Program-made: the position numbers and the translations under genes
DNA from: Legionella jamestowniensis
Lineage (GTDB): Bacteria > Pseudomonadota > Gammaproteobacteria > Legionellales > Legionellaceae
NCBI RefSeq assembly: GCF_001467745.1
Contig: NZ_LNYG01000013.1
Span: 289,751-353,750, forward strand
Length of the DNA stretch: 64,000 nt
Reading direction: 5' to 3'
Notes under the pieces: model-generated
Told to the model about the DNA's origin: nothing
Seen by the model: only the letters and a program-made list of their open reading frames with translations
The model's database searches: none
In this document: in pieces, positions 18,546 to 49,447 of the stretch
Numbering within the stretch: the stretch's first letter is position 1
Layout of the letters: every line of letters begins with the position of its first letter

Positions 18546-18984
18546 AAAAATTCTCCAATATTCAGATCGCGGCTTCTGCTGCCTAATTTTATAATTTCTT
18601 TTATTTTAAATAATAAATTTCGAAAAATCATAGTACAAATACAAATAATTGATAATTTTAATTTTTCTGTTAAATAATTTTAAAATTTTTCTATATTTAA
18701 AATATTTTTAACCTTTTCAGAGGAGAAGCATGTAGTCATCCTGTATTCTTTTTTTGGGTCTTGTGGCATTCGAAATTCGACCAACAACTTAATAATAAAT
18801 ACATTAATGCACAATCTAAATACGCTTACCCTCTAATTTAGTCTAACTGATTTAATTAATTGCTTCATGCTATAATAATGACGTCAAAAAATGAAAAAAA
18901 CTTGAAAACTTAAGAAAGCATTAAAAATCAGAAGATAAATGATGAATGTGTAGCTGATAATAACAATTGAGAAGGCGAAAAATT
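18546..18984. other. AT-rich intergenic region with the NRPS promoter
   Basis: About 440 bp of very AT-rich sequence. A perfect TATAAT at 18871-18876 lies 114 bp upstream of the NRPS start and is the best promoter candidate; the -35 is weak. No reading frame or RNA gene could be supported. Confidence 0.45.
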
Positions 18985-21900
18985 GTGCAAGCTAAAAAGG
19001 CATTTAGTTGTTATCTCATAGGAGATGATAATATAACCCTACAATGTGCTTCGATTATCTTAGCAAAAAATCATCAATTATTAGGTTTGATATCTTCATC
19101 AAAAAGCATCCAAAAATGGTGTCAAACAAATGCCATACCTTACATCAAAAATCTAAAAGAATTTGCAGAACATCATATGCATAACTCATGTGATTTCTTA
19201 TTTAGTGTTGCCAATGGTTTCATTCTTCCCCCCTCCATACTTACCTACCCACGTTTTTACGCTATCAATTACCATAACAGCCCCTTGCCCAAATACGCAG
19301 GCTTATATGCCACATCCTGGGCGATTCTTAATAATGAAAAGGAGCATGCGATTAGTTGGCATATCATGGATGAGAAAGTCGACGCTGGGGATATCTTAAA
19401 ACAACCCTATTTTTCAATCGAAGAAGATGAGACAGCGCTTAGTTTAAATTTAAAATGCTATGAACATGCAGTACGGGCATTTGAGGAACTTGTGGACGAA
19501 CTCAGTATAAACTCTGTAAACCTGGCTAAACAAAATTTATCCTTTAGGTCTTATTATGGCTTGAGACATAAGCCAGATAATTTTGGTTTTATTTCATGGA
19601 ATAAATCATCCAATGAGATTGACCGACTGTGTAGAGCTCTTACTTTTGGTCATTATAAAAATGAACTGGCCACCCCTAAAATAATTGTTAATGACGAGGT
19701 ATATGTTATCAACTCCTATCGAAAGCTAGGTATATCTACAGGAGAACCGCCAGGAACAATAGTACACATCTCGTCAACTGATATACAAATCACCACACAA
19801 ACCACTGACATTGTTCTTTATGAACTCATGAATCTTGCAGGTGTTATGGTTCCTATCGACCGATTGATTGAATTACATAAACTTGCCCGTGGCCAAAAAC
19901 TTCCTGAAATTGATAAGGGTTACATTGAATGTTTAATGGCCCACCCTGCTATAACCAATCCTAAATATGAACAATTCTGGGTGAAAGAATACTTACAATG
20001 TATTCATGGCGGTGTTTCATTTTTATCCCCCCTCATAAAATTAGATGATGAACATTCATTGTCCTGTCAAACACACAAAAGGATAAAAATACCTGAAGAG
20101 TTACAAAAAAAGGTAACGTTGTACTCCCAAAAGAAAAATTCACAAGTGAAAACTATTATTTTCACACTTCTTTTAACTTACTTATACCGCCTCAATAATT
20201 ATGTAAACTTTTCCTGGATCTATAGCTCTTCATCACTCAAAGAAAAGGTTGGCTTTTTAGGTAAAATTCTCGAAAACTATCTTCCCTTAACCTCACATTT
20301 GACCGCTGAGATGGTTTTTAGTGACGTTTTATCGTTTATTGAGAAGGAAAACGAACGACTTATATCACATGAAACTTACTGTAAGGACATTTTTTGTCGT
20401 TATCCAGAATTAAACGGATTAACTAATGAAATAGATATCAGTATTTCCTTTTTTAAGCCAAAGGATAGTCCTACCTTTCTTTCTAATAAAAAATTAAATT
20501 TCTACCTCTCAGAAGATGCCTCCTGGATTCTTGTCCATAATCAAACCAATTATAAAGTCCATGAAGAGTCGTTCGCTTTTTTTAATAACATGGAACAGCA
20601 TCTTTGTTATTTATTAAAAGATGTACTGAATCATCCTGATAAAAAGCTTTTTGAATTATCGTTCCTCAGTGAAAATGAAGAAAATTGCCTTTTAAAGGTG
20701 TGGAATGATACCAAATGGCCCTATGATACCAGCAAATTGTTGCACCAATACATTGAAGCGCAAGTCGTTAAAACGCCTCATTCTTTAGCGGCTATTTTTA
20801 ATGAGGAGACGATTACTTATGAAGAATTAAACAAAAAATCCAATCAAGTAGCCCATTGTTTGATTTCTAATGCAATAAAACCTAATGACATCATTGGAAT
20901 TTATCTCCATCGAAGCATGAATATGTTAATTAGTATTCTTGGAGTTTTAAAATCAGGCGCAGCTTATCTGCCCTTGGATCCTCATTATCCTCATAAACGA
21001 ATTAATTACATGCTGGAAAACAGCCAATCCAAAATTCTACTGACTGATGAGAAATCCGTTTCTAAACACATTCATGACTACAAAGGATTAATCATCGATG
21101 TGGAAAAGATTTTAAAAAATGAAGAGTACCCCTCAACTACTCCGCTCATTTCGACCAAATCTTCTGATTTGGCTTATGTCATTTATACCTCAGGAACGAC
21201 AGGCACTCCCAAAGGTGTAGCGATTCCACAAAAAGCCACCTGCAATCATATGGTATGGATGAAAAATGCTTATGATTTCAATGAACAAGATGTTTTTTTG
21301 CAAAAAACTCCTTTTTCGTTCGATGCCTCCGTATGGGAATTCTTTATGCCGCTTTTGGTAGGCGGAAGATTAGTTCTAGCACCCGATGATTCGCATGCAA
21401 GCCCTAAGGAATTAATTAATCTAGTTATCAAACACAAAGTGAACATACTTCAGCTTGTTCCTTCAATGCTTCGTGAGATGACGCTGACAGAAGGATTTGA
21501 TAAATGCACCTCATTACGACATATCTTTTGTGGTGGCGAGGTCTTGTTACCAGAAACCATCCATACCTTTTTTGAACACAATTGGTTTGGTTGTTTACTT
21601 CATAACCTTTATGGCCCCTCAGAAGCAACCATAGATTCAGTCACTCAAACCTGCTCACCTAACGATGCACTTCTACCTGTCAGTCGTATTGGAAAACCAA
21701 TATCGAATGCGAAAGTCTTTGTCTTAGATGAAAAAATGCAATTGGTTCCTATGGGAATTTTAGGCGAACTTTACATCTCTGGTGATGGGTTAGCAAAGGG
21801 CTATCTCAATAATGAAGCACTCACCCAACAAAAATTCTTACCCAACCCATTTGGTACTCAACAGGATGAATTGGTTTATAAAACGGGGGATTTAGTCAAA

Positions 21901-23268
21901 TGGCAGAGCCATGGGATTCTAGAATACCATGAGCGTCGAGACAGTCAGATAAAAATTCGTGGTTTTAGAATTGAGATTAGTGAGATTGAATCTTGTCTTG
22001 ATAAAATACCTTGTATTTATCAATGTCTAGTTAAACCTGAATCAGCACCTAATGGTGCACTGACCTTATCTGCATACCTCGTTCTCATTGATAATGAACA
22101 AATAACAGCTGCCGAAATTCGTTCTTTTTTAAAAAGTGAACTTCCTGATTATATGATTCCAACGCGGTTTTTTGTTGTAGAAAAATTATTAACAACACCC
22201 AGTGGTAAACTTGATAGAAAACACCCCCCTACCCCTTTAAGACAACTCAACCTTGCTCAAGAACATCTAGCCCCTCAAAACGAACTAGAGAAAGGGCTAC
22301 AAGAGATTTGGTGTTCTGTTTTAAAAACAAACGACTTAGGTATTTATGATGATTTCTTTGAAATGGGCGGCCACTCTTTAGCGGCGATGAATATTATCTC
22401 GCAGATTAAAGAGAAATTTTCCATTCACTTAAGTATGAGAAAATTATTTGATTTTTCAACCATTCATTCCCTGGCTATTGAAATAGAACAATTACTGCAA
22501 GTTAATGAGAATTGTAATAGTGAATTATCGCTTTCTGAACGTATTATCATCCCAATTAAAGAATCAGGGAATCAAACGCCTTTGTTTTTAATTCATCCTA
22601 TTGGGGGAAGCATATTTTGGTATAAATCCCTTGGCAAATATCTTCATGAAGATGTGCCCTTATACGGTTTACAAGATCCTGGCCTTGAAACTCAAGACTT
22701 CTTTTTTCAAGATTTGGAGCAAATGGCAAATACTTATATCAAAGCAATCCAAACGATTCAACCTAAAGGGCCCTATCTTATTGGAGGAGCTTCCTTTGGA
22801 AGCACTGTTGCTGTTGAAATTGCCAAACAACTTCAAGACAAAAATGAGAAAATACTCGCAATCCTATCCTTGGATGGCTGGGCTGAATACCCTGCGTTAC
22901 AAAGGAATGAGGAGCACTTTAAAGTGCTCATGCAAGAACAAAATAAACGAATATTAGAACAACATCTACAAAATAAAATTCAGCATCCTGAAAATTTATT
23001 AGAACTTCAATGGCAACGAGAAAAAATGCTGATGCATTATAAATTGCCTAGAATTAGGTCAAAATTCATTTTATGCAAAGCCGAAACACTGACTGATTTA
23101 TTTAACTACGATGCACCTTTAAACTGGTGGGAAAATTATTCGGAAGAAAAAATCACCTGTTATTTGGTGCCAGGTGATCATGAAACTATGTTTTCTGAAC
23201 CTCATATTAAAGTTTTGGCCAATAAACTGAATGAATTGTTAAACTCGATACATAATACTATGTTATAG
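18985..23268 (+). CDS. Single-module NRPS: formyltransferase-C*-A-PCP-thioesterase
   Basis: 1427 residues from the GTG at 18985, chosen because AGAAGG lies nine bases upstream; a TTG at 18967 would add six residues. Domains in order: Fmt-like formyltransferase (~5-285; NYHNSPLPKYAG and VDAGDIL keep the N-H-D catalytic set); degenerate condensation-like region (~320-570) with no HHxxxDG; adenylation domain (~580-1085; YTSGTTGTPKG, FDASVWE, NLYGPSEATIDS, KIRGFRIE, PSGKLDRK); carrier (GGHSL, Ser 1131); type I thioesterase (GGASFGS, Ser 1270; LSLDGW; PGDHE). Specificity residues by eye read DAWQFGLID plus K, recalled as a glutamine code. Predicted product: a formylated amino acid derivative, released or transferred by the TE. 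A hybrid kinase gene follows closely. Confidence 0.88.
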   Translation: MQAKKAFSCYLIGDDNITLQCASIILAKNHQLLGLISSSKSIQKWCQTNAIPYIKNLKEFAEHHMHNSCDFLFSVANGFILPPSILTYPRFYAINYHNSPLPKYAGLYATSWAILNNEKEHAISWHIMDEKVDAGDILKQPYFSIEEDETALSLNLKCYEHAVRAFEELVDELSINSVNLAKQNLSFRSYYGLRHKPDNFGFISWNKSSNEIDRLCRALTFGHYKNELATPKIIVNDEVYVINSYRKLGISTGEPPGTIVHISSTDIQITTQTTDIVLYELMNLAGVMVPIDRLIELHKLARGQKLPEIDKGYIECLMAHPAITNPKYEQFWVKEYLQCIHGGVSFLSPLIKLDDEHSLSCQTHKRIKIPEELQKKVTLYSQKKNSQVKTIIFTLLLTYLYRLNNYVNFSWIYSSSSLKEKVGFLGKILENYLPLTSHLTAEMVFSDVLSFIEKENERLISHETYCKDIFCRYPELNGLTNEIDISISFFKPKDSPTFLSNKKLNFYLSEDASWILVHNQTNYKVHEESFAFFNNMEQHLCYLLKDVLNHPDKKLFELSFLSENEENCLLKVWNDTKWPYDTSKLLHQYIEAQVVKTPHSLAAIFNEETITYEELNKKSNQVAHCLISNAIKPNDIIGIYLHRSMNMLISILGVLKSGAAYLPLDPHYPHKRINYMLENSQSKILLTDEKSVSKHIHDYKGLIIDVEKILKNEEYPSTTPLISTKSSDLAYVIYTSGTTGTPKGVAIPQKATCNHMVWMKNAYDFNEQDVFLQKTPFSFDASVWEFFMPLLVGGRLVLAPDDSHASPKELINLVIKHKVNILQLVPSMLREMTLTEGFDKCTSLRHIFCGGEVLLPETIHTFFEHNWFGCLLHNLYGPSEATIDSVTQTCSPNDALLPVSRIGKPISNAKVFVLDEKMQLVPMGILGELYISGDGLAKGYLNNEALTQQKFLPNPFGTQQDELVYKTGDLVKWQSHGILEYHERRDSQIKIRGFRIEISEIESCLDKIPCIYQCLVKPESAPNGALTLSAYLVLIDNEQITAAEIRSFLKSELPDYMIPTRFFVVEKLLTTPSGKLDRKHPPTPLRQLNLAQEHLAPQNELEKGLQEIWCSVLKTNDLGIYDDFFEMGGHSLAAMNIISQIKEKFSIHLSMRKLFDFSTIHSLAIEIEQLLQVNENCNSELSLSERIIIPIKESGNQTPLFLIHPIGGSIFWYKSLGKYLHEDVPLYGLQDPGLETQDFFFQDLEQMANTYIKAIQTIQPKGPYLIGGASFGSTVAVEIAKQLQDKNEKILAILSLDGWAEYPALQRNEEHFKVLMQEQNKRILEQHLQNKIQHPENLLELQWQREKMLMHYKLPRIRSKFILCKAETLTDLFNYDAPLNWWENYSEEKITCYLVPGDHETMFSEPHIKVLANKLNELLNSIHNTML

Positions 23269-23313
23269 AATAAGAATTTATTGATAATTCTTTCACGAAT
23301 ATTTACCTATTTC

Positions 23314-25668
23314 ATGGAATTGATGCCTATGACTACTGTGGATGGACAAGCACTATCAACGCTTCTTCAAATGGCTCAAGAACCCATTCTTTTAGTATCA
23401 GAAGAGTATATTATTCTTGATGTAAATCACGCTCTGGAAGATAAATTAATCCTTAAAAAGAACCTTCTTATTGGAGCTTCGCTCACTAATTTCTGCTCGA
23501 AGGAGGATTTAAAGAAAATAAGTAAATCTAATCTTAAAAAAATTACCTTAAAGACAAAGAAAAATAAGTGTATTTGTTATGCCTTAATCATCGAATCACT
23601 CACCCAAGATAAAAAAGAAACTGTTGCTAGACCTCACGAGGGCAATTCTCAGGCGACACCAATTGAAAAGAAAATAGAAGATTACAGCAACACCAATTAT
23701 CAATACCTTGAAGCAATCATTTCTGAAATTCCTGTGAGCGTGTACTGGATGAATAAAGATTATATCTATCTTGGCTGTAGTAATAGCATGGCAAAGCTAC
23801 TTAATCTGCAATCACGGCATGATATTGTAGGTAAAACCTATGCTGATTTATATGATAAAAAATCGGCTGACTTTTATAAAAAATCCGATAAGTCAGTCAT
23901 TGAGAAAGGAATTTCATTAAGCTTAGAAGAGCCGCTTTATCAACCAGATGGCACAAAACTTATTTATTTATCCAAGAAAGTACCCTTGCATGATAATAAT
24001 AGGAAAATCATAGGTATGCTAGGAATTTCAACCGATATTACCGAAAGAAAACAAATGGAAATTGATTTAAAGTTGGCTAAAGAAGCCGCTGAAGCAGCAG
24101 ATCGCGCTAAAACAGAATTTATTGCCAACATGAGCCATGACCTGCGCACACCGATTTCTGGGGTAATTGGTATGGCAGAAATTTTAGAAGACGCCTTAGA
24201 TGACAACGAACACAAAACAGAAGCTCATATGATCCACGACAGTGGTGAAGAGCTACTGTCTATGTTTAATGATATTATTGATGATATAAAAGCTGGCAAC
24301 ATTAATTACGAAGAATTACAAGAAGAAGCATTTGATTTGTACGAAAGCATTAATGATTTAATCAAACTAGAGCTCCCTACTGCCATTGCTAAGCAGTTAG
24401 GGCTGCATTTAAAAATCGATGAAACAGTCCCACGAAATATTATAAGCGACCGTAAAAAAATTCAACGCATTCTTTTAAATTTATTAGGAAATGCCATTAA
24501 ATTTACCAAAACAGGGAGTATAACTGTTGAAGTAAAATGTGTCGAACACAATAATGACCGGGCTAGGGTTCAATTTAGCGTGTCTGACACAGGTATTGGG
24601 ATCCCGAAAGAATGGCACAGCAAAATATTTGAACGTTTTTTTCGTTCCACCCCTTCTTATAAAGGAATTTATAAAGGCTATGGCTTAGGGTTACACATAG
24701 CGAGCAGCTACGTTAAATTGCTAGGTGGACGCATAACACTAACCAGTATAGAAGGAAAGGGCAGTACGTTTCAATTTGAAATACCATGTCAAATAGCCAA
24801 CATCTCTGATAAAAAAAGCAAACCTTCTCTACCTAGTACACAACGCTCCTCAAACTCTCTTCTTTGTTTACTGATAGAAGATAATGTAGCAGCTTTAAAA
24901 GTTTTGGAAGCACTAGTCACAAAAGCAGGTTTTAGCTATAAATCAGCTACAAGTGGTGAAGAAGCACTGAATTTAATTAAATTGATATCATTTGACCTAA
25001 TCGTAACTGACATCGGATTACCTGGTATTTCAGGTACTGAATTTTGCTCACTAACCCGGCAATGGGAACATGATAACAAGAAAGCACCTCAACCTATTAT
25101 TGGATTAACTGGTCATGCTCGTGAAACAGCCTATGAGGAATGCATTGCCTCGGGTATGAACGATGTTTTTACAAAACCAGCCAACTTAGAACTCATCCAC
25201 AGTTTAATTAAACGATTCTCATTAGGAGATTCTTCGATAGAACAGGAAAAAATGGATACTACTCCTGATATTGTGTTGCATGACCTTCCCGCAACAGAAG
25301 ATGAATTATTTCAATTAGAAAAATACGCATTGCTTGATGTCGAGGAAGCACTAATCAACTGCGGAAATAACAAGGCATTGTTAACTGAATTACTTACTTT
25401 AATGACTCATAAAGAAGTACCAGAAGATTTAGAAAAAATGAAGAATGCTTATGCTATCCACGACTTTTCTATGGTGGAAAAACTAGCTCATAAGATAAAG
25501 AGTGGTGCTGTTTATGTTGGCGCCACACGGATGAAATATGCTTGCCAATTTCTCGAGCGTTATTGGAAATCTGGACAACGCGATTTATTTGAAAAATTGT
25601 ATCAACAAGCACTCTTGGTTATTGATGAGAGCATTCATGAAATTAGCCATTGGTTAGATAACCAATAA
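23314..25668 (+). CDS. ArcB-like hybrid histidine kinase (PAS-HisKA-HATPase-REC-HPt)
   Basis: About 784 residues from the ATG at 23314; ATGs at 23323 and 23329 are alternatives. Two N-terminal sensor segments are visible, the second a clear PAS (YWMNKDYIYLGCSNSMAKLL) ending in ITERK. Then HisKA with H275 (NMSHDLRTPISG), HATPase (NLLGNAIKFT, DTGIGIP, GYGLGLHIA), receiver with phospho-Asp D566 (LIVTDIGLPG), and an HPt domain with H726 (AHKIKSGAVYVGA). No transmembrane segment, so a cytoplasmic sensor. It begins 45 bp after the NRPS stop, so co-transcription and sensing of, or control over, the NRPS product are plausible but unproven. Confidence 0.9.
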   Translation: MELMPMTTVDGQALSTLLQMAQEPILLVSEEYIILDVNHALEDKLILKKNLLIGASLTNFCSKEDLKKISKSNLKKITLKTKKNKCICYALIIESLTQDKKETVARPHEGNSQATPIEKKIEDYSNTNYQYLEAIISEIPVSVYWMNKDYIYLGCSNSMAKLLNLQSRHDIVGKTYADLYDKKSADFYKKSDKSVIEKGISLSLEEPLYQPDGTKLIYLSKKVPLHDNNRKIIGMLGISTDITERKQMEIDLKLAKEAAEAADRAKTEFIANMSHDLRTPISGVIGMAEILEDALDDNEHKTEAHMIHDSGEELLSMFNDIIDDIKAGNINYEELQEEAFDLYESINDLIKLELPTAIAKQLGLHLKIDETVPRNIISDRKKIQRILLNLLGNAIKFTKTGSITVEVKCVEHNNDRARVQFSVSDTGIGIPKEWHSKIFERFFRSTPSYKGIYKGYGLGLHIASSYVKLLGGRITLTSIEGKGSTFQFEIPCQIANISDKKSKPSLPSTQRSSNSLLCLLIEDNVAALKVLEALVTKAGFSYKSATSGEEALNLIKLISFDLIVTDIGLPGISGTEFCSLTRQWEHDNKKAPQPIIGLTGHARETAYEECIASGMNDVFTKPANLELIHSLIKRFSLGDSSIEQEKMDTTPDIVLHDLPATEDELFQLEKYALLDVEEALINCGNNKALLTELLTLMTHKEVPEDLEKMKNAYAIHDFSMVEKLAHKIKSGAVYVGATRMKYACQFLERYWKSGQRDLFEKLYQQALLVIDESIHEISHWLDNQ

Positions 25669-42640: not shown

Positions 42641-43471
42641 TCAAGTAGGTACAGTAATAATTGGTCTTGCGAAACTAACTTTTCTGTCTAGAGAGCCCTC
42701 TATTCTTCTATTTAAATTAACTTTACCAATCATACCTCTATGTATACCTTCAACTACTGCTTCAATAAGTGTACTACAATCGAAAACCTCGCGAACATGT
42801 TTTAAATATTTTTCAACAGTGTAGGGACTAATTTTAAGAACTTGAGCAATTTGTTTCGCGGAGTTACCTTGTGCAGCCAGCCATAAGCATTCTTGTTCAC
42901 GAACGGGTATTGATGCTTTTTCAGAGTAACCGCCTCTTATTACTGCATGCCGATGTGCTTTATTAGTCAAAATAAAAGAAAATTTGTACTTCGCATTGCA
43001 GTAAGTAATTAATTCAAGAAAAGTATCAACAAAATTAATACAGAAATTTTCAAAAGATCGAATTGTTTTCTTATAAAATTGTTCTGAATCTGTCAGAGTA
43101 TTCCGTATGGCACTGAACACAAAAGTACATTCTGCGCAGCGTCTAATAATGTTATAAACTGGATAAATATTATATTGTTCAGTTAATATAGTTTTTAATC
43201 GAGGAGAAATAAATTGGACTTTATCACATAAATAAAAATCACCTTGCGTAAAAGTAATCATTCCAGGCGTGTACGTATAATCCTCTTTATACAAAGCTTC
43301 CTGATAATAGGATAAAATAATCGGATAGACATTTGATAGAATTAGCAAATCCCCATCATTGAAAATCAGATACATTACAAAATGTTTAAGCCCCATACTT
43401 CTTAAAGGTCTACACGCCTCATCAATTTGCTTTCTATAAGCTAGACTTAAAATGTAGGGTACATCCTTCAT
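42641..43471 (-). CDS. LuxR-type HTH transcriptional regulator
   Basis: 276 residues. LuxR/GerE helix-turn-helix near 188-245 (PVREQECLWLAAQGNSAKQI, AQVLKISPYTVEKYLKHVRE). The N-terminal ~185 residues are unassigned; Cys residues occur in RRCAECTF. It continues ~30 residues past the HTH (LNRRIEGSLDRKVSF), which is unusual because the HTH normally ends the protein. Divergent from the signalling operon (43683-49447) across 211 bp, so it is a candidate regulator or output of it. Confidence 0.85.
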   Translation of the reverse strand: MKDVPYILSLAYRKQIDEACRPLRSMGLKHFVMYLIFNDGDLLILSNVYPIILSYYQEALYKEDYTYTPGMITFTQGDFYLCDKVQFISPRLKTILTEQYNIYPVYNIIRRCAECTFVFSAIRNTLTDSEQFYKKTIRSFENFCINFVDTFLELITYCNAKYKFSFILTNKAHRHAVIRGGYSEKASIPVREQECLWLAAQGNSAKQIAQVLKISPYTVEKYLKHVREVFDCSTLIEAVVEGIHRGMIGKVNLNRRIEGSLDRKVSFARPIITVPT

Positions 43472-43682
43472 AATTCCATTTCCTTTTTAAATTTATGACC
43501 TCAAAATTAATACAAGCATCGCCATATAATTAATAGTGATATGTCAGCAATTATAATTACACTTTTTATCAAGTCAATGGTGTATTTACACTTTATGCGC
43601 ACTTTTTTTGTTAATTAGTTCTACTAGGAATTATTTCATATATAATGGCTCAATTTGAATGTAAGATTTTTAGAGAGACTAA

Positions 43683-44402
43683 ATGTTAGCAATTGCAAAA
43701 CCTAAAATAGTCTTATTAGATGACGATCAATCCTTATTAGAAGTTATCTGTTATTATTTCCATGAAAAATTTAAAGAAACCGTTTTGGTGGAGATCTTTT
43801 CGAAAAGCCAGGACTTTTTTCTTTATATTCAAGAAAATTGTTATTTATCAGAGTCACCCTCCGATATATTAAATTCATTTTATGCTAACACTAAAAGCAA
43901 AGAACAAATTAAGAAAACGTTGAAAGATTTATCAGAGCTATCAGCAATACTTGTGATAGACCAAGAGCTCAGAGAGGAAAATGTTACAGGAATAGAATTA
44001 AGCAACCAAATTAGGCAATACTTCCCATCGGCTTATATTAGTATGCTGACGAGCAATATTCCTACCGATAAGGCGGTCGAGTTACATAATAACCACAGTA
44101 TAGACTTGTTTATAGATAAAAAAGACATTAATGCCATACATAATCTATATGTATATCTATCAAAACAAATAGATGAAATCAAAAATGAATACATGATAGA
44201 CCCAATAGATATTTTTGAGTATGCAGATATCTTTGAGAATGACGAATACCTAAACAATAAAAATATACTACTAGAAAGAAATAACCCTATATCATTTTTA
44301 ACCCTTAATAATGATGGCGATATTGCGTTTATGAAAAAAAATAAACAAATATCTTTCTGGAAATATAATTCTCAATCGAAACAATTTACTGAATATGAAT
44401 AG
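43683..44402 (+). CDS. Atypical response regulator (receiver plus unassigned C-terminus)
   Basis: 239 residues. Receiver core residues are conserved: acidic triad D13-D15 (IVLLDDDQ), phospho-acceptor D93 (AILVIDQEL), T123 (SMLTSN) and K146 or K147 (LFIDKKD). About 40 extra residues separate strands 2 and 3, so the phospho-Asp is displaced from its usual position near 55. The C-terminal ~85 residues carry no recognised DNA-binding domain. The pattern IDxxLxxxxxTGxxL is shared with the C-terminal receiver of the kinase at 47750. The next gene overlaps its 3' end by 8 nt. Confidence 0.8.
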   Translation: MLAIAKPKIVLLDDDQSLLEVICYYFHEKFKETVLVEIFSKSQDFFLYIQENCYLSESPSDILNSFYANTKSKEQIKKTLKDLSELSAILVIDQELREENVTGIELSNQIRQYFPSAYISMLTSNIPTDKAVELHNNHSIDLFIDKKDINAIHNLYVYLSKQIDEIKNEYMIDPIDIFEYADIFENDEYLNNKNILLERNNPISFLTLNNDGDIAFMKKNKQISFWKYNSQSKQFTEYE

Positions 44403-45027
44403 TCAAGAAATCTCAAATATCTTAATAAATCTTTCACCTGCGAAAAGAATTAAATTTATTAGGCAAAAACTTCTTAAGCAGAATCAACAAACGTTTTGTG
44501 AAGACGGCATTATTAGATCTGGAACTTTAAAATCAATCGAAATAGAAAGAATCAAAGTTGGTCCTAAAATCGCCGAAAGACTTGTGCATAAATTAAATCT
44601 TGAGGGTATTATATGTGATGTCAGTCTCTTTTTAGAGCAGAATTCCCCTTGTACGATAAAAATCGACTCATCCAAAAAAGAACTTGCAGGTAGCTCAATG
44701 AGCTACTTAGAAGAAATTAGACAAAAAATAACCCAGCTTACTCCGATAAAAATTTCTACTAGTGAATACGCACCACAGTTTCCAGCCCAATCTACATTAC
44801 TAGCATATGAAGCAACAAAAGAACATTTAAAGGACTTTGACAAAACTTTATGTTTTATTCAAGGTAATAAATCTTCCTTATATTATTTGACTTATCTTAA
44901 TGAACATGAGCTAGAAGGAGAAATAAATAACAAAAAAATTAAAATCTCTACTAACATTATTGAGTTCTGTACAATATTTATTGTTGAAATAATTTATTTG
45001 ATAAGCAATAAAAAATCAAATTTATAG
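44395..45027 (+). CDS. Putative HTH regulator (210 aa)
   Basis: 210 residues; its ATG overlaps the response-regulator stop by 8 nt, indicating translational coupling. The N-terminal ~70 residues (RIKFIRQKLLKQNQQTFCED, GIIRSGTLKSIEIERIKVGP, KIAERLVHKL) follow an XRE-like helix pattern, and the rest resembles the sensor part of phage-repressor-like proteins without a protease motif. Assignment is by pattern only. It may be the DNA-binding output that the receiver protein lacks. Confidence 0.55.
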   Translation: MNSQEISNILINLSPAKRIKFIRQKLLKQNQQTFCEDGIIRSGTLKSIEIERIKVGPKIAERLVHKLNLEGIICDVSLFLEQNSPCTIKIDSSKKELAGSSMSYLEEIRQKITQLTPIKISTSEYAPQFPAQSTLLAYEATKEHLKDFDKTLCFIQGNKSSLYYLTYLNEHELEGEINNKKIKISTNIIEFCTIFIVEIIYLISNKKSNL

Positions 45028-45347
45028 ATTTTTAATAACCTTTTATACGGATTATACTAATTGAAAATATCTTAAGATTAGAGAAAATTCAAATAAATCG
45101 ACTTTTAGGTTCTCAACAAATCAAGGACTAGAAATCATATCGAATAAAGTAATGATACTCCTTCCAAATAATCTTGATTTTAAGTATTTCATTTACTACC
45201 ATCCCGGCAACACAAAATGTCTAATTTTTGGTTTTCTCATGATATTAAGGTATTTCCTTTATAGTATTATAATTTTTTTTTAAGCAACCCGCATATGGAG
45301 AAGCATTACTAATAGTTCCTTTTGACTCGAAAAAAGGCCAGCAATAT
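45028..45347. other. Intergenic region with a detached signal-peptide-like frame
   Basis: 320 bp. From an ATG at 45239 a frame reads MILRYFLYSIIIFF and stops at a T9 run (45273-45281). The adjacent frame after the run continues KQPAYGEALLIVPFDSKKGQ into the phytochelatin-synthase-like gene. The 5' end of that gene therefore appears to be separated by a one-base change in the T-run. Confidence 0.55.
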
Positions 45348-45941
45348 TTGCTAACTAGCAATCTAAATACTAATTTTTTTAAACTTATTGAAAACTACAC
45401 TAGTCAAAAAAATCAAGTATATTGTGGTATAGCCAGTGCTGTTATAATTCTTAATTCACTTGAGACTATCCCGGATTCGTTATTGTTTGATAAATATTAT
45501 TTTTTTACTCAAGAAAATGTTTTTCTTTCTGACTTTAAAAACAAAAAATTTATGGATGAAATTTATAAGCATGGAATAACATTAGATAAATTAGGAGAAA
45601 TGCTAAAAGAAAAAAAAGTTGATGTCATAATCAAACATGCTAGTAGTAAAGGATATTTTAACTTTATTCATGATATTGAAAATACTTTACATCATCAAAA
45701 TTTTATTATAGTGAATTTTTTTAGGCCAAAAATAAATCAAGAAGGAGGAGGACACTTTTCTCCTATAGCCGCATACAATAAAAATAAAAACTCTGTTTTG
45801 ATTTTAGATGTGGCGAGATATAAACAAAAACCTTTTTGGATTAATGCAGATAGATTATGGAAATCTATGAATACTTTAGATAAAAGAGCTCATAAAAGCA
45901 GAGGTTATTTAATTATAAAAGGTGTTCCGCATGAAAAATAA
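45348..45941 (+). CDS. Phytochelatin synthase-like transpeptidase (C58)
   Basis: 197 residues from the TTG at 45348; homology clearly continues upstream to ~45312 (LLIVPFDSKKGQQ), so the natural N-terminus, probably with a signal peptide, lies before the T9 run. Catalytic triad: C26 (QVYCGIASAVIILNSL), H136 (GGGHFSPIAAY), D154 (LILDVARY); H-D spacing of 18 equals plant enzymes. Bacterial members cleave glutathione or gamma-glutamyl peptides rather than polymerise them. Its ORF overlaps the SDR start by 11 nt. In this operon it could process a thiol peptide. Confidence 0.82.
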   Translation: MLTSNLNTNFFKLIENYTSQKNQVYCGIASAVIILNSLETIPDSLLFDKYYFFTQENVFLSDFKNKKFMDEIYKHGITLDKLGEMLKEKKVDVIIKHASSKGYFNFIHDIENTLHHQNFIIVNFFRPKINQEGGGHFSPIAAYNKNKNSVLILDVARYKQKPFWINADRLWKSMNTLDKRAHKSRGYLIIKGVPHEK

Positions 45942-46647
45942 AACAGTTATTATTACGGGGGCAAGTAAAGGTATTGGGGAAGAATTAGCAAAATATTTTG
46001 CTCAGAAAAAATATAATCTTTTTTTATTGGCAAGAAATGCTTTATTGTTACGAAACTTAAAATATAGCTTAGAAGAACAATATGCTGGTGCTTGTGTTGA
46101 ATATCGAGAATTGGATATCACTGATACAGATGAATTAAATTTTGTTTTAAAAACATACTGCAAAACACATGAATCTATTGACGTTCTAATTAATAACGCT
46201 GGTTTTGTAAAAAGAGGAACCTCTGAAATTGATAATTCTGATTTAAATGAAATGGTTGAGGTTAACCTAAAAGGACTTATGAATACAACAAATATTGTTG
46301 TTCCGTTCATGAAAAAGCAAGGATATGGGCAAATTATTAATATGTCCTCTAGAAACGCTAAAATATCACGCGTTTTTTTAGGTGTTTATGCTGCAACTAA
46401 AGCTGGTGTACTAGCTTATAATGAAGCCTTATACAAGGAATTGATGGAGTATGGCATTAAAGTCACTGCCCTTGTCCCTGGATTTGTAAATACTCAAATG
46501 ACATCGGATGTTCCTTTAGATAAAAAATTGCTAATTCAACCAGAAGATATCTCATATTTTGTAGATTTTATTCTGGGTTTACCTGATAGAGTCGCGTTAA
46601 AAGAAATATGCTTTGAAGCAAAACCTCAGGTTGGCAAGTATGCGTAA
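45931..46647 (+). CDS. Short-chain dehydrogenase/reductase
   Basis: 238 residues from the ATG at 45931, which overlaps the previous gene by 11 nt. Classical SDR: TGASKGIGEE, LINNAGF, INMSSRNAK, and YAATK with the Tyr/Lys pair. It overlaps the binding-protein gene by 8 nt at its 3' end. Placement directly before a receptor and kinase suggests it modifies the ligand, as 3-keto/hydroxy signal enzymes do; this is inference. Confidence 0.88.
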   Translation: MKNKTVIITGASKGIGEELAKYFAQKKYNLFLLARNALLLRNLKYSLEEQYAGACVEYRELDITDTDELNFVLKTYCKTHESIDVLINNAGFVKRGTSEIDNSDLNEMVEVNLKGLMNTTNIVVPFMKKQGYGQIINMSSRNAKISRVFLGVYAATKAGVLAYNEALYKELMEYGIKVTALVPGFVNTQMTSDVPLDKKLLIQPEDISYFVDFILGLPDRVALKEICFEAKPQVGKYA

Positions 46648-47778
46648 GTTATTATTGCTTATAACTATTTCTTTGGTAGTTATTAGTCACTATGGTTTCT
46701 CCCAGCATCTTCGAATAGGAATCTTAGATAGTTTCTCATATCAAAAATATGTTTCCGTAAATTATGAAAAATATTATATGGATGGCTTTAACCTTGCCAG
46801 AGTAAATGCTTTAAAAAAAGGAGTTGAAATAGAATATAAAATTTTTCGATATCGATACGATGGACTTTCAATAGTTAATGCTATAAAAAACTGCAAAAGT
46901 GGAAGCCAGATGCCATTATTGGCCCTCGAGACTCTAAAAGTTTTCTTACTTTGGCTGGATATTTAAAAAATACATTATGTGTATCCCCATTCGCAACCTC
47001 CCTTAAAATTAAATCATTACCATCTAATTTTCACAGCATGACCTATCTTGATGATTATACTTCTCAAATATTCATTTATTTCTTTGAAAAAGAATTCAAA
47101 TCAAAACCGATTTATTCTTTAGTTGAATTAGATTGTCGAAGTTGTAAAGATTTAGCAGACGAAGTTGAAAGGAATTATCATGGTGCTTTTAGAAAAAATT
47201 ATTTTCTAAAAGCAGATATTGAAGATGACGATCTGGAAAAATTATTGACGAATTATAACGGAGAAGATTACATATTTCTTCCCGATACAGCACACTCTAC
47301 AGCCGTTTTAATGATAAGGCTATCTAATTATCTGAAAAAGAATTTAATTTTTATAGGTGGTGATGGTTGGGGTACATGGGGAGACTCAGAGGTGGGGCGC
47401 ACAAGTTTAAAGTATCCTATGAAGGCATTCCATATTACTCCTTGGTCTCTAGAAATTGAAACGAAAAGAACAACGCATTTTAAAAAGAATTATTCTAAAT
47501 TTTACGGAAAGAAGCCAGAAAATAAATTGTCATTTATTATATATGAAACAACTAACTCTCTTGTTGAATCATTTTTACTTATTCCTTCGAACTGCAATCA
47601 AAAACTTAATACCCAAGAACAAATAAAGTGCTCATATAATTCCAAGCTCATTCATAAACCTGCTTGGCGCAAACCTGATGGATATGCGGTTTTCAAAATA
47701 GAAAACAATATTAATCAATTATTTGCTGTAATCAATAAGGATGTTTCATATGGAAGTATCTTTAAAAAAGAAAATTAA
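46640..47778 (+). pseudogene. ABC-type periplasmic binding protein, interrupted by a -1 frameshift
   Basis: ATG at 46640 with a signal peptide (RKLLLLITISLVVISHYGFS). Frame 2 reads to DGLSIVNAIKN at 46891, then diverges. The protein continues in frame 1 (LQKWKPDAIIGPRDSKSFLT, LAGYLKNTLCVSPFA) to 47778. The switch falls on A AAA AAC (46885-46891), in the reading phase required for -1 slippage. With the shift, a single ~378-residue branched-chain-amino-acid-type (Peripla_BP_6) protein results. No ABC permease is adjacent; a hybrid kinase overlaps its end, so it is likely a sensory receptor. It may be a true pseudogene, a sequencing error, or a recoded gene. Confidence 0.7.
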
Positions 47779-49447
47779 ACAGAAAATTAGCTCACGAATA
47801 GGATTTAGTCTTTTTTTGTCAGCTTTGCTGATGATGTCGTTAACTATCTCTGATATACACAATGTCTTAATTAGTAAAGAACATGATTTAAAAAGATTTT
47901 CTAGAAACTTAGATAATTATATTGTCAGTCAGTTAATTATAGGAAATAAAGAAGCTATTCTTTATAAATTGAAAAAAGAGGAAGATAAAAGCCACATATT
48001 TATTCATTGGAAAGAAAACTCTCAAGAGAATAATAATAAAATCTCATTTGTGTGGCCATACAATTGGAAAATAATTCATCATATTGAATCAATAGTTGAT
48101 GGTAATTTTGGAGAATACATAATTCGGGGATCGCTTTTAGATGATAAAGAATTGATTAGAAGTATTTTTACCCGATTTTCTGTATTTGTATTTTTTCTAA
48201 TATTGGTTGTATGGATTTTATGGCCATTATATTACCGAATTCCTCATAATATCATTTTAAAACCAATAGCAGAGTTGTTAGCAACCATTGATGAAACTGA
48301 AAAAAATAATGCTCCTTATGGAAAGAGTGAGCCGAATATAATAGAAATAAATTTGCTTAAAAATAAAATTATTTCAATGGTAAATGAAATAAGATACAGA
48401 ACACGTGAAAGTGTAGCTTTAAATATTGCTCAACAGGTAGCGCATGATATTCGTTCACCTATATTGGCTTTAGAGTCATTACACTCTATTTCATTTGAGT
48501 TATCCTTAGAAAAACGCAATATGATACGCACGATTGTGAAGAGAATGAATTCAATTATAAACAATTTATCTGACATCACCCATCATAGCGATTTATGTAT
48601 TGATCCTCAGAACAATAATGATTGTTTTATTTATAATCTATTAAGTAATATTCTGGAGGAAAAAAAATTAGAATACTATAGTCGAGATATTATTTTTTCA
48701 ATTAATATTTCTCGTGATTTGATTGGTGTATCCTCTAACATTGACGAAGAAAAATTTGAACGCTGTATTTCAAATATTTTGAATAATTCAATTGAAGCCT
48801 TAAATCCTGGCGGCGTAGTTATCTTGGCAGCAGACCTTCACAATGAATGTATACATATATCTATATCTGATAATGGAAAAGGTATTCCTGCTGATCAAAT
48901 AGATAATATTTTTTTAAAAGGTTTCAGTTTTAATAAAAAAAATGGCAAAGGGCTAGGTTTAACATTTGCTAAAGAATGTATTGAGAGTTTTGGAGGAAAA
49001 TTACAGATAAAATCTTGCTTTGAGCAGGGAACTGTTGTTGATATTTTTTTAAATGCCCGTCCCTCTCCTGATTGGTTGTGTAAAAGAATTGATCTCTCAA
49101 AATACAATCACATATGCGTTCTAGATGATGAGGAAGAAATACATGAAATATGGTACAAAAAGTTGGTAGGTTCTATTAATAAAGAAAAAATTATGTCTTT
49201 TTATGATAGTTCAAAATTTATTAGGTATTTAAATAAAATAAATAAACATGAGACTTTATTTTTAATTGATTATCAAATAGCGAAGAATGAATTGACTGGT
49301 TTGCAGATTATTACTGATTTTAATCTACAAGATGATGCTTTTTTGGTAACAAGTTATTATGCTGATAAACGCATAATCAGTGAATGCGTTAAAAACAATA
49401 TTAAGATAATTCCTAAAATTTTATTAAGTTATATTACAATTAATTGA
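47750..49447 (+). CDS. Membrane hybrid histidine kinase with C-terminal receiver
   Basis: 565 residues from the ATG at 47750; the upstream in-frame ATG at 47741 adds three residues. Two membrane helices (~19-35 and ~142-163) flank a ~105-residue periplasmic domain. HisKA H232 (QQVAHDIRSPILALE), HATPase motifs NILNNSIEAL, SDNGKGIP and GKGLGLTFAKE, then a receiver with D507 (LFLIDYQIA) and LVTSYYAD. It overlaps the binding-protein gene by 29 nt. The layout of periplasmic receptor plus hybrid kinase is like LuxP-LuxQ. The H-to-D path may continue to the RR at 43683, but no HPt protein is encoded nearby. Confidence 0.88.
   Translation: MEVSLKKKIKQKISSRIGFSLFLSALLMMSLTISDIHNVLISKEHDLKRFSRNLDNYIVSQLIIGNKEAILYKLKKEEDKSHIFIHWKENSQENNNKISFVWPYNWKIIHHIESIVDGNFGEYIIRGSLLDDKELIRSIFTRFSVFVFFLILVVWILWPLYYRIPHNIILKPIAELLATIDETEKNNAPYGKSEPNIIEINLLKNKIISMVNEIRYRTRESVALNIAQQVAHDIRSPILALESLHSISFELSLEKRNMIRTIVKRMNSIINNLSDITHHSDLCIDPQNNNDCFIYNLLSNILEEKKLEYYSRDIIFSINISRDLIGVSSNIDEEKFERCISNILNNSIEALNPGGVVILAADLHNECIHISISDNGKGIPADQIDNIFLKGFSFNKKNGKGLGLTFAKECIESFGGKLQIKSCFEQGTVVDIFLNARPSPDWLCKRIDLSKYNHICVLDDEEEIHEIWYKKLVGSINKEKIMSFYDSSKFIRYLNKINKHETLFLIDYQIAKNELTGLQIITDFNLQDDAFLVTSYYADKRIISECVKNNIKIIPKILLSYITIN

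What the first reader, a model, noticed from the sequence alone, without database searches (positions are those of the whole stretch)
42641..49447. Candidate new signalling system: thiol-peptide enzyme, SDR, binding protein and hybrid kinase
Six genes from 43683 to 49447 are tightly packed, several with 8-29 nt overlaps. They encode an atypical response regulator, an HTH protein, a phytochelatin-synthase-like transpeptidase, an SDR, a periplasmic binding protein without any ABC permease, and a membrane hybrid kinase. The last two mirror LuxP-LuxQ, and a LuxR-type regulator is divergent. The enzymes could make or process a ligand, possibly a gamma-glutamyl thiol peptide derivative, that the receptor/kinase senses. 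I know of no described system with this gene set.
Basis: inference. Interest (0 to 1): 0.8.

Follow-up and report, generated by a model that had tools for sequence, protein, structure and literature searches.

The report
Enzyme-receptor-kinase signalling cassette in Legionella
A Legionella gene cluster that looks like a chemical-signal cassette (signal-modifying enzymes, a receptor protein and a sensor kinase) belongs to a family of such cassettes in which the enzymes are swapped while the kinase stays, although two genes of this particular copy are frame-broken.

Summary
The exact set was found only here. The kinase belongs to a large family: 44 of 143 Legionellaceae genomes; 434 stretches in GTDB genomes, the best 80 including Bdellovibrionota and Elusimicrobiota. 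In 39 non-redundant Legionellaceae cases, kinases with one to three TM helices have a binding-protein gene directly upstream in 21 of 22, other topologies in 0 of 17. Beside it stand exchangeable enzymes: hydrolase, SDR, ATP-grasp+MFS, isochorismatase, DPP-IV, NRPS, GNAT; elsewhere YcaO, radical SAM, methyltransferases. Control kinases have an OmpR-type regulator there (5 of 6). An LqsR-type regulator lies within 5 kb in 21 of 42 cases, an LvrR-like repressor in 16, lvrA/B-type mobile-element genes in 7; the window's regulator and HTH gene are short versions of that pair. Best reading: a possibly decaying member of a modular, autoinducer-like synthase-receptor-kinase class that may control a mobile element. 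Ligand, export and output are inferred. The LuxR gene is a frequent but not exclusive neighbour. The papers searched describe no such class.

The parts
43683..44402 (+). short response regulator, distant relative of the LqsR-type regulators found near many kinases of this family
   Evidence: PF00072 E 0.0013, below the curated cut-off; profile-profile match to 9 LqsR-type regulators over 210 columns, E 3.1e-8; D13/D14, D93, T123, K146 invariant. Found in 5 of 143 family genomes, all 5 of which have a family kinase.
44395..45027 (+). HTH repressor-like protein, relative of the LvrR-like genes of Legionella mobile elements
   Evidence: No Pfam or NCBIfam match itself. 74% identical to L047 and aligned with 9 further LvrR-like sequences; one of these has a weak S24 peptidase match (E 0.017, below cut-off). 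The name LvrR rests on position next to CsrA/lvr-type genes and on PMC3864950 passages.
45239..45941 (+). C58 phytochelatin-synthase-like enzyme; ORF 45348-45941, frame open from 45273; signal-peptide-like start at 45239 lies in another frame
   Evidence: PF05023 E 3.9e-56; Nostoc Alr0975 structures E 9.2e-45 with Cys, His and Asp of the triad aligned (which residues form the triad is recalled); frames read apart.
45931..46647 (+). short-chain dehydrogenase/reductase
   Evidence: PF00106 E 8.7e-49; 51% identical to the SDR next to the kinase in L045.
46640..47778 (+). type I periplasmic binding protein (LivJ/LivK-like), broken into two ORFs in different frames: 46613-46966 and 46951-47778
   Evidence: hhalign to the family profile A6: N part E 1.1e-5, C part E 1.6e-11; predicted fold of an intact relative (L125) matches LivK 3td9 E 8.8e-20.
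47741..49447 (+). membrane hybrid histidine kinase: 2 TM, about 100-residue extracytoplasmic PAS-like domain, HisKA-HATPase, C-terminal receiver
42641..43471 (-). divergent LuxR-type regulator; frequent neighbour of such cassettes, membership open
   Evidence: GerE E 1.9e-9; in 18 of 143 genomes, multi-copy; 8 of the 18 have the kinase, and in 5 of these 8 the two lie within 10 kb.

Best explanation
The locus is one member, possibly decaying, of a modular class of signalling cassettes. One or more cassette-specific enzymes (here C58 and SDR) make or tailor a small molecule; a dedicated type I binding protein captures it outside the inner membrane and docks on the PAS-like sensor domain of the hybrid kinase; the kinase passes phosphate through its receiver to a response regulator without a recognised DNA-binding domain (here the short LqsR-like protein), which acts on the LvrR-like repressor encoded in the overlapping next gene and so switches genes of a mobile element. 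Shown by comparison: linkage of kinase, binding protein and enzyme, exchange of enzymes, pairing of kinase topology with the presence of a binding protein, and the RR-repressor gene pair. Inferred: that the enzyme product is the ligand, that it leaves the cell, docking, and the RR-to-repressor step.
For: Kinases with one to three TM helices have a binding-protein gene directly upstream in 21 of 22 non-redundant Legionellaceae rows, other topologies in 0 of 17 (one search printed 1 of 17, p 7e-9; that gene belongs to a small family whose member L046:10760-11071 is a monooxygenase by Pfam). An enzyme gene lies within four genes upstream, on either strand, in 28 of 39. Enzyme identity changes on the kinase tree (34 changes for 19 labels on 60 rows; least 18, shuffles 45). 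In the GTDB set 21 of 40 tested partner genes are enzymes, among them tailoring enzymes of natural-product pathways: YcaO, radical SAM-B12, ATP-grasp, methyltransferases. Control kinases: 5 of 6 have an OmpR-type regulator upstream, 0 an enzyme. GNAT partners go with multi-TM kinases (9 of 10, against 1 of 42), the layout of LuxM-LuxN (recalled). The own genome's second cassette (L055) has ATP-grasp, MFS transporter, hydrolase, binding protein, kinase. An LqsR-type regulator lies within 5 kb in 21 of 42 non-redundant rows (relation to 6sy9). The short RR is followed by the LvrR-like gene in 5 of 5 genomes.
Against: No ligand, export, docking or phosphotransfer shown. Isochorismatase and DPP-IV partners fit catabolism as well as synthesis. 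15 of 40 partner genes of the GTDB set had no Pfam match, 1 was a regulator, 2 binding proteins, 1 MFS; enzymes were 14 of the 20 chosen by hand but 7 of the 20 taken by rule. 29 of 66 kinases with one to three TM helices in the GTDB set had no binding protein recognised by the crude rule. The phylogenetically independent test of GNAT against topology has only 5 pairs (p 0.125). Half of the non-redundant rows have no LqsR-type regulator within 5 kb and only 7 of 42 have lvrA/B-type genes. In this copy two genes are frame-broken. Short RR and kinase are on different contigs in 2 of 5 genomes. No lvrA relative was found in this genome.
Confidence: 0.5

Rival explanations
1. Nutrient or host-compound sensing: the binding protein and kinase detect an environmental compound (for example glutathione or a peptide) and the neighbouring enzymes break it down or modify it.
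For: The nearest solved C58 relatives are Nostoc Alr0975, which mainly hydrolyses glutathione (recalled). DPP-IV stands with a family-5 binding protein and isochorismatase with another binding protein. The binding-protein fold is that of amino-acid receptors.
Against: ATP-grasp + MFS, NRPS, YcaO, radical SAM-B12 and acyltransferase partners are builders rather than degraders. No ABC permease appeared among the neighbours that were annotated, though none was searched for as such.
Confidence: 0.27
2. A dead or dying island remnant: the cluster no longer works in this strain and tells only of past acquisition.
For: C58 and binding-protein genes are frame-broken; in the nearest cassette, L045 (a MAG contig), no N-terminal half of the binding protein was recognised between the SDR and the C-terminal half; low GC; second LvrR-like copy broken.
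Against: RR, HTH, SDR and kinase are open and RR and kinase keep their key residues; the breaks lie in homopolymer-rich stretches where sequence error and slippage are common; a tgt gene of the same assembly is also broken, which points to possible sequence error.
Confidence: 0.3
3. A thiol or metal stress sensor: C58 makes metal-binding thiol peptides and the kinase reports metal or thiol status.
For: C58 family; a [DN]CxxCxD motif in this binding-protein subfamily.
Against: The CxxC motif also occurs in cassettes with nitroreductase (L121), MFS (L123), hydrolase (L155) or shikimate-kinase-like (L141) partners; no other gene of the cluster points to metals.
Confidence: 0.05
4. Chance neighbours without common function.
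For: The exact gene set was found nowhere else.
Against: Overlapping genes; SDR-binding protein-kinase order recurs in L045, L064 and L100, and with two ORFs between SDR and binding protein in L131; the binding-protein-kinase link holds in 21 of 22.
Confidence: 0.03

Closest known systems
Lqs system of Legionella (LqsA, LqsR, LqsS)
   Same: LqsR-type response regulators lie near many of these kinases (full-length match of one to 6sy9, E 3.2e-41; within 5 kb in 21 of 42); synthase, kinase and regulator in one cluster.
   Different: No LqsA-type enzyme in the cluster; the kinase is not LqsS (23% over 112 aa, E 7.6e-5, to the likely LqsS of the same genome) and carries its own receiver; a binding protein is added. 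The own genome has a separate Lqs-like cluster (L235).
LuxP-LuxQ (and LuxM-LuxN) of Vibrio
   Different: Binding protein best matched by LivJ/LivK; a single small PAS-like domain instead of two; different regulator; enzymes encoded with the receptor.
lvrRABC regulatory module of Legionella mobile elements
   Same: LvrR-like repressor gene next to or near the kinase (within 5 kb in 16 of 42 non-redundant rows); lvrA/lvrB-type genes within 5 kb in 7 of 42; CsrA and TraT beside them in L095.
   Different: The window copy has no lvrA/lvrB/CsrA neighbours; the one description searched (PMC3864950, find in the main text, passages read) does not use the words histidine kinase, sensor or response regulator.
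Phytochelatin synthase-like proteins (Alr0975 type)
   Same: Family and catalytic residues.
   Different: Operon-like arrangement with a kinase; only 30-34% identical to the other Legionella C58 genes in the seven near-full-length matches.

Membership tests
LuxP-LuxQ type receptor | binding-protein gene adjacent to a membrane hybrid kinase with extracytoplasmic PAS-like domain | tested here: met
   (binding-protein gene frame-broken here)
LuxP-LuxQ type receptor | two tandem PAS-like domains in the periplasmic part (recalled) | tested here: not met
   about 100 residues between TM1 and TM2, one domain in the model
LuxP-LuxQ type receptor | LuxP-type binding protein that binds AI-2 | tested here: inconclusive
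   best sequence and fold matches are LivJ/LivK; ligand not testable
Lqs system | LqsR-type response regulator (receiver + C-terminal output domain) | tested here: inconclusive
   window RR: profile match E 3.1e-8 to LqsR-type regulators but shorter and no single-sequence match to 6sy9 at E<=1; a 330-aa regulator of a related cassette matches full length
Lqs system | LqsA synthase and LqsS kinase | tested here: not met
   the cluster has no PLP aminotransferase-type gene; kinase is only weakly similar to the likely LqsS
lvr mobile-element module | LvrR-like repressor | tested here: met
   alignment A2; profile A2 finds it as best hit in the genome (the sequence is itself in the profile)
lvr mobile-element module | lvrA/lvrB and lvrC (CsrA) next to it | tested here: not met
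   no such gene recognised beside it; lvrA relative not found in the genome by one protein query, which alone shows little
Phytochelatin synthase family (PF05023) | Pfam match with catalytic Cys, His, Asp | tested here: met
Phytochelatin synthase family (PF05023) | complete open reading frame | tested here: not met
   start region lies in another frame
Quorum-sensing system (self-made, secreted ligand) | product of the cassette is the ligand and accumulates outside | not testable with these tools
   needs biochemistry

The most novel reading that the evidence does not exclude
A large, undescribed class of cell-to-cell signalling cassettes, spread over Legionella mobile elements, Bdellovibrionota and Elusimicrobiota, in which a conserved hybrid kinase is combined with interchangeable signal synthases (YcaO, radical SAM, NRPS, ATP-grasp, GNAT, SDR, C58 and others) and matching receptors, so that each cassette uses its own chemical; in Legionella the cassettes speak through LqsR-type regulators to LvrR-like repressors and so let mobile elements sense neighbours carrying the same element.
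Probability: 0.38. Interest if true: 0.92.

Novelty: new variant of a known kind. Interest (0 to 1): 0.72.

Why it matters
If the enzymes make the ligand, these cassettes would add many chemically distinct autoinducer systems in environmental bacteria, each with its receptor and synthase side by side, which makes ligand discovery direct: express the cassette, find the product, test it on the neighbouring binding protein. It would also join Legionella quorum sensing (LqsR family) to the control of mobile elements.

Tried and rejected
Conserved C58 linkage: C58 relatives exist in 10 of 22 genus genomes and 8 of 369 class genomes at E<=1e-20, own genome counted in both; apart from the window's own, no relative of the window's kinase, binding protein, SDR, RR or HTH showed up in the about 1.5 kb fetched on each side (for the class hits, for the genus hits and the own second copy). 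The LuxR gene as a fixed part: rejected as such, since 10 of 18 genomes with it have no family kinase; but 5 of the 8 with both have the two within 10 kb, so a looser link stays open. Viral contigs: no relative with a single-protein query. A promoter/terminator scan gave no more than shuffles. No tRNA in the window. The CxxC motif of the binding protein as proof of a thiol ligand: rejected, since it occurs with other partners. Foldseek with the sensor model gave no match at E<=0.001; the PAS-like assignment rests on the second look. HTH profile against PDB: one weak match only. Prior-art searches: (listings; passages read only of PMC3864950 and PMC3376566); none listed describes this class by title or abstract start, but the library lacks most subscription papers and all bioRxiv preprints.

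Selection to be known: the first 20 partner genes of the GTDB set were chosen by hand; the next 20 were taken from the list, where 19 further loci had no partner gene, or only a small or odd one, and were not tested. One of the 40 (L121) is a Legionellaceae MAG (same contig as L087). Control kinases: 6 of 11 candidates had a testable upstream gene. Loci are the best 80 of 434, and the 434 are relatives by tblastn E<=1e-3 only. In one search, 42 of 57 rows remained after removing near-copies (85% identity), and 39 had enough sequence; the profiles used for labels were built from the same loci, four GNAT partners (L047, L050, L051, L090) and one counted enzyme (L114) stand on the opposite strand. 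The tree used 60 rows picked by me, quick method, site-homogeneous model, partner labels partly by hand. TM helices and signal peptides are by simple hydropathy.
Full report
WHAT IS THERE. The window lies at G000:C13:289751-353750 of a 3.34 Mb assembly in 13 contigs. The genus is Legionella by the named records found for its relatives. Between 43683 and 49447 stand a response regulator, an HTH protein, a C58 phytochelatin-synthase-like enzyme, an SDR, a binding protein and a hybrid kinase. Overlaps are 8, 11, 8 and 29 nt, but 320 nt lie between the HTH gene and the first in-frame start of C58. Two genes are not open from end to end. The C58 frame has no usual start codon before 45348, and a signal-peptide-like start lies upstream in another frame. 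The binding-protein gene changes frame between 46613-46966 and 46951-47778. Each half matches its own half of the family profile. The same assembly has a frame-broken tgt gene and a frame-broken second LvrR-like gene, so sequence error, decay and phase variation all remain possible.

THE PATTERN. Neighbourhoods of 57 kinase rows in 53 fetched stretches plus the window were read. After removing near-copies, 39 rows had enough sequence. Of the 22 with one to three predicted TM helices, 21 have a binding-protein gene directly upstream; of the 17 with many or none, the script printed one, whose gene belongs to a small family with a monooxygenase match (member L046:10760-11071), so 0 of 17. In the GTDB set a crude rule gave 37 of 66 against 0 of 14, with redundant and Legionella rows included. 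Three different kinds of binding protein take this place in Legionellaceae: type I (Peripla_BP_6/ANF_receptor), family 5 and an SBP_bac_8-like family.

THE ENZYMES. Kinds seen: alpha/beta hydrolase; SDR; C58+SDR (window); ATP-grasp with MFS transporter and hydrolase (L054 and the own genome's second cassette L055, which also has a GDSL hydrolase and a homocysteine S-methyltransferase); isochorismatase; DPP-IV; GNAT; nitroreductase; and a 1454-residue NRPS with condensation, adenylation, carrier and reductase domains directly before a TM-less kinase. Among the GTDB loci, 21 of 40 tested partner genes are enzymes: YcaO in 3, radical SAM-B12 in 2, methyltransferases of several kinds, ATP-grasp, hexapeptide acyltransferases, GNAT, SET, glutamine amidotransferase, CN-hydrolase, SDR and others; 1 MFS, 2 binding proteins, 1 response regulator, 15 without a match. 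Enzymes were 14 of the 20 picked by hand and 7 of the 20 taken by rule. Six non-family Legionella kinases served as control: five have an OmpR-type regulator upstream, one has no match, none an enzyme. GNAT partners go with multi-TM kinases in 9 of 10 rows, other enzymes in 1 of 42; with phylogeny taken into account only five independent pairs remain, about four in favour, none against (p 0.125). On a quick tree of 60 kinase cores the partner label needs 34 changes (least possible 18, shuffled mean 45, as low in 0 of 200): it is clustered, yet swapped often.

THE OUTPUT SIDE. Within 5 kb of the kinase an LqsR-type regulator was found in 21 of 42 non-redundant rows (34 of 57), an LvrR-like gene in 16 of 42 (29 of 57), lvrA- or lvrB-type genes in 7 of 42 (20 of 57) (profiles built from the same loci). 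One 330-residue regulator matches the whole of PDB 6sy9 (E 3.2e-41; profile of twelve regulators E 2.9e-72). The record calls it 'Response regulator'; I recall it as LqsR, and the first residues of the regulator in the own genome's Lqs-like cluster, as shown, are nearly those of 6sy9 (L235). The window regulator is a shorter relative (E 3.1e-8 profile to profile; no single-sequence match to 6sy9 at E<=1). It occurs in 5 of 143 family genomes, all 5 of which have a family kinase, and in all 5 it is followed by the LvrR-like gene; kinase and pair are close together in 3 of the 5 and on different contigs in 2. In L095 and its kin the LvrR-like gene is next to two genes that I name lvrA and lvrB from their position, with CsrA and TraT genes beyond. 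Passages of PMC3864950 say that lvrRABC is a regulatory module of Legionella genomic islands and that these genes regulate excision of one island. Hence the proposed output, switching of a mobile element, is an inference from neighbourhood. The LuxR-type gene is in 18 of 143 genomes; 10 of these lack the kinase, but in 5 of the 8 with both the two lie within 10 kb, so it may be a common mobile-element neighbour.

MECHANISM. Proposed: cassette enzyme(s) produce or finish a ligand; the ligand leaves the cell (MFS genes in some cassettes; unknown here); the binding protein presents it to the kinase; phosphate passes to the regulator; the regulator frees or blocks the LvrR-like repressor. Only the gene linkage, the domain content and the conserved residues are shown.

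KNOWN OR NEW. The architecture is that of known quorum-sensing receptors (LuxPQ, and LuxMN for the GNAT type; recalled), and the regulator family is that of Lqs. The combination with exchangeable enzymes and lvr genes was not found in the listings of the papers searched, a limited library. The exact window combination was found in no other locus examined. I file it as a new variant of a known kind.

Noticed in passing
window 18967-25668: A 1433-residue single-module NRPS (best PDB match linear gramicidin synthase A, E 1e-227) is followed 12 nt later by a 795-residue PAS hybrid kinase: a second synthase-kinase pair in the same window.
   Followed up: partly
G000:C1:500-9000 (L055): The own genome holds a second cassette with open genes: GDSL hydrolase, homocysteine S-methyltransferase, ATP-grasp, MFS, hydrolase, binding protein, kinase; beside it a frame-broken LvrR-like copy 94% identical to the window's over its first 119 residues.
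   Followed up: partly
L109:347-6590: NRPS with terminal reductase overlapping a TM-less family kinase, with an LqsR-type regulator downstream.
   Followed up: no
L235 (G000:C4:69000-83000): Lqs-like cluster (PLP aminotransferase-type enzyme, regulator, kinase); the nearby tgt gene is frame-broken.
   Followed up: no
window 42641-43471 and relatives: LuxR-type regulator present in several copies in some genomes (4 matches in G003, 2 in G000 and G008), up to 84% alike between species, and within 10 kb of a family kinase in 5 of the 8 genomes that have both.
   Followed up: partly
L135:1-6879: A 2292-residue reading frame, open at the start of the fetched stretch, without any Pfam match, stands before a family-5-type binding protein and a family kinase in a Bdellovibrio MAG.
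   Followed up: no
L095:10649-10876 and relatives: A 75-residue protein family follows the kinase in many Legionella cassettes; no Pfam or NCBIfam match for the member tested.
   Followed up: no
L129, L133, L137, L138, L139: Cassettes with the same gene lengths and nearly the same kinase scores in L. bozemanae, L. parisiensis, Fluoribacter gormanii, L. gratiana and L. santicrucis, as after recent transfer.
   Followed up: no
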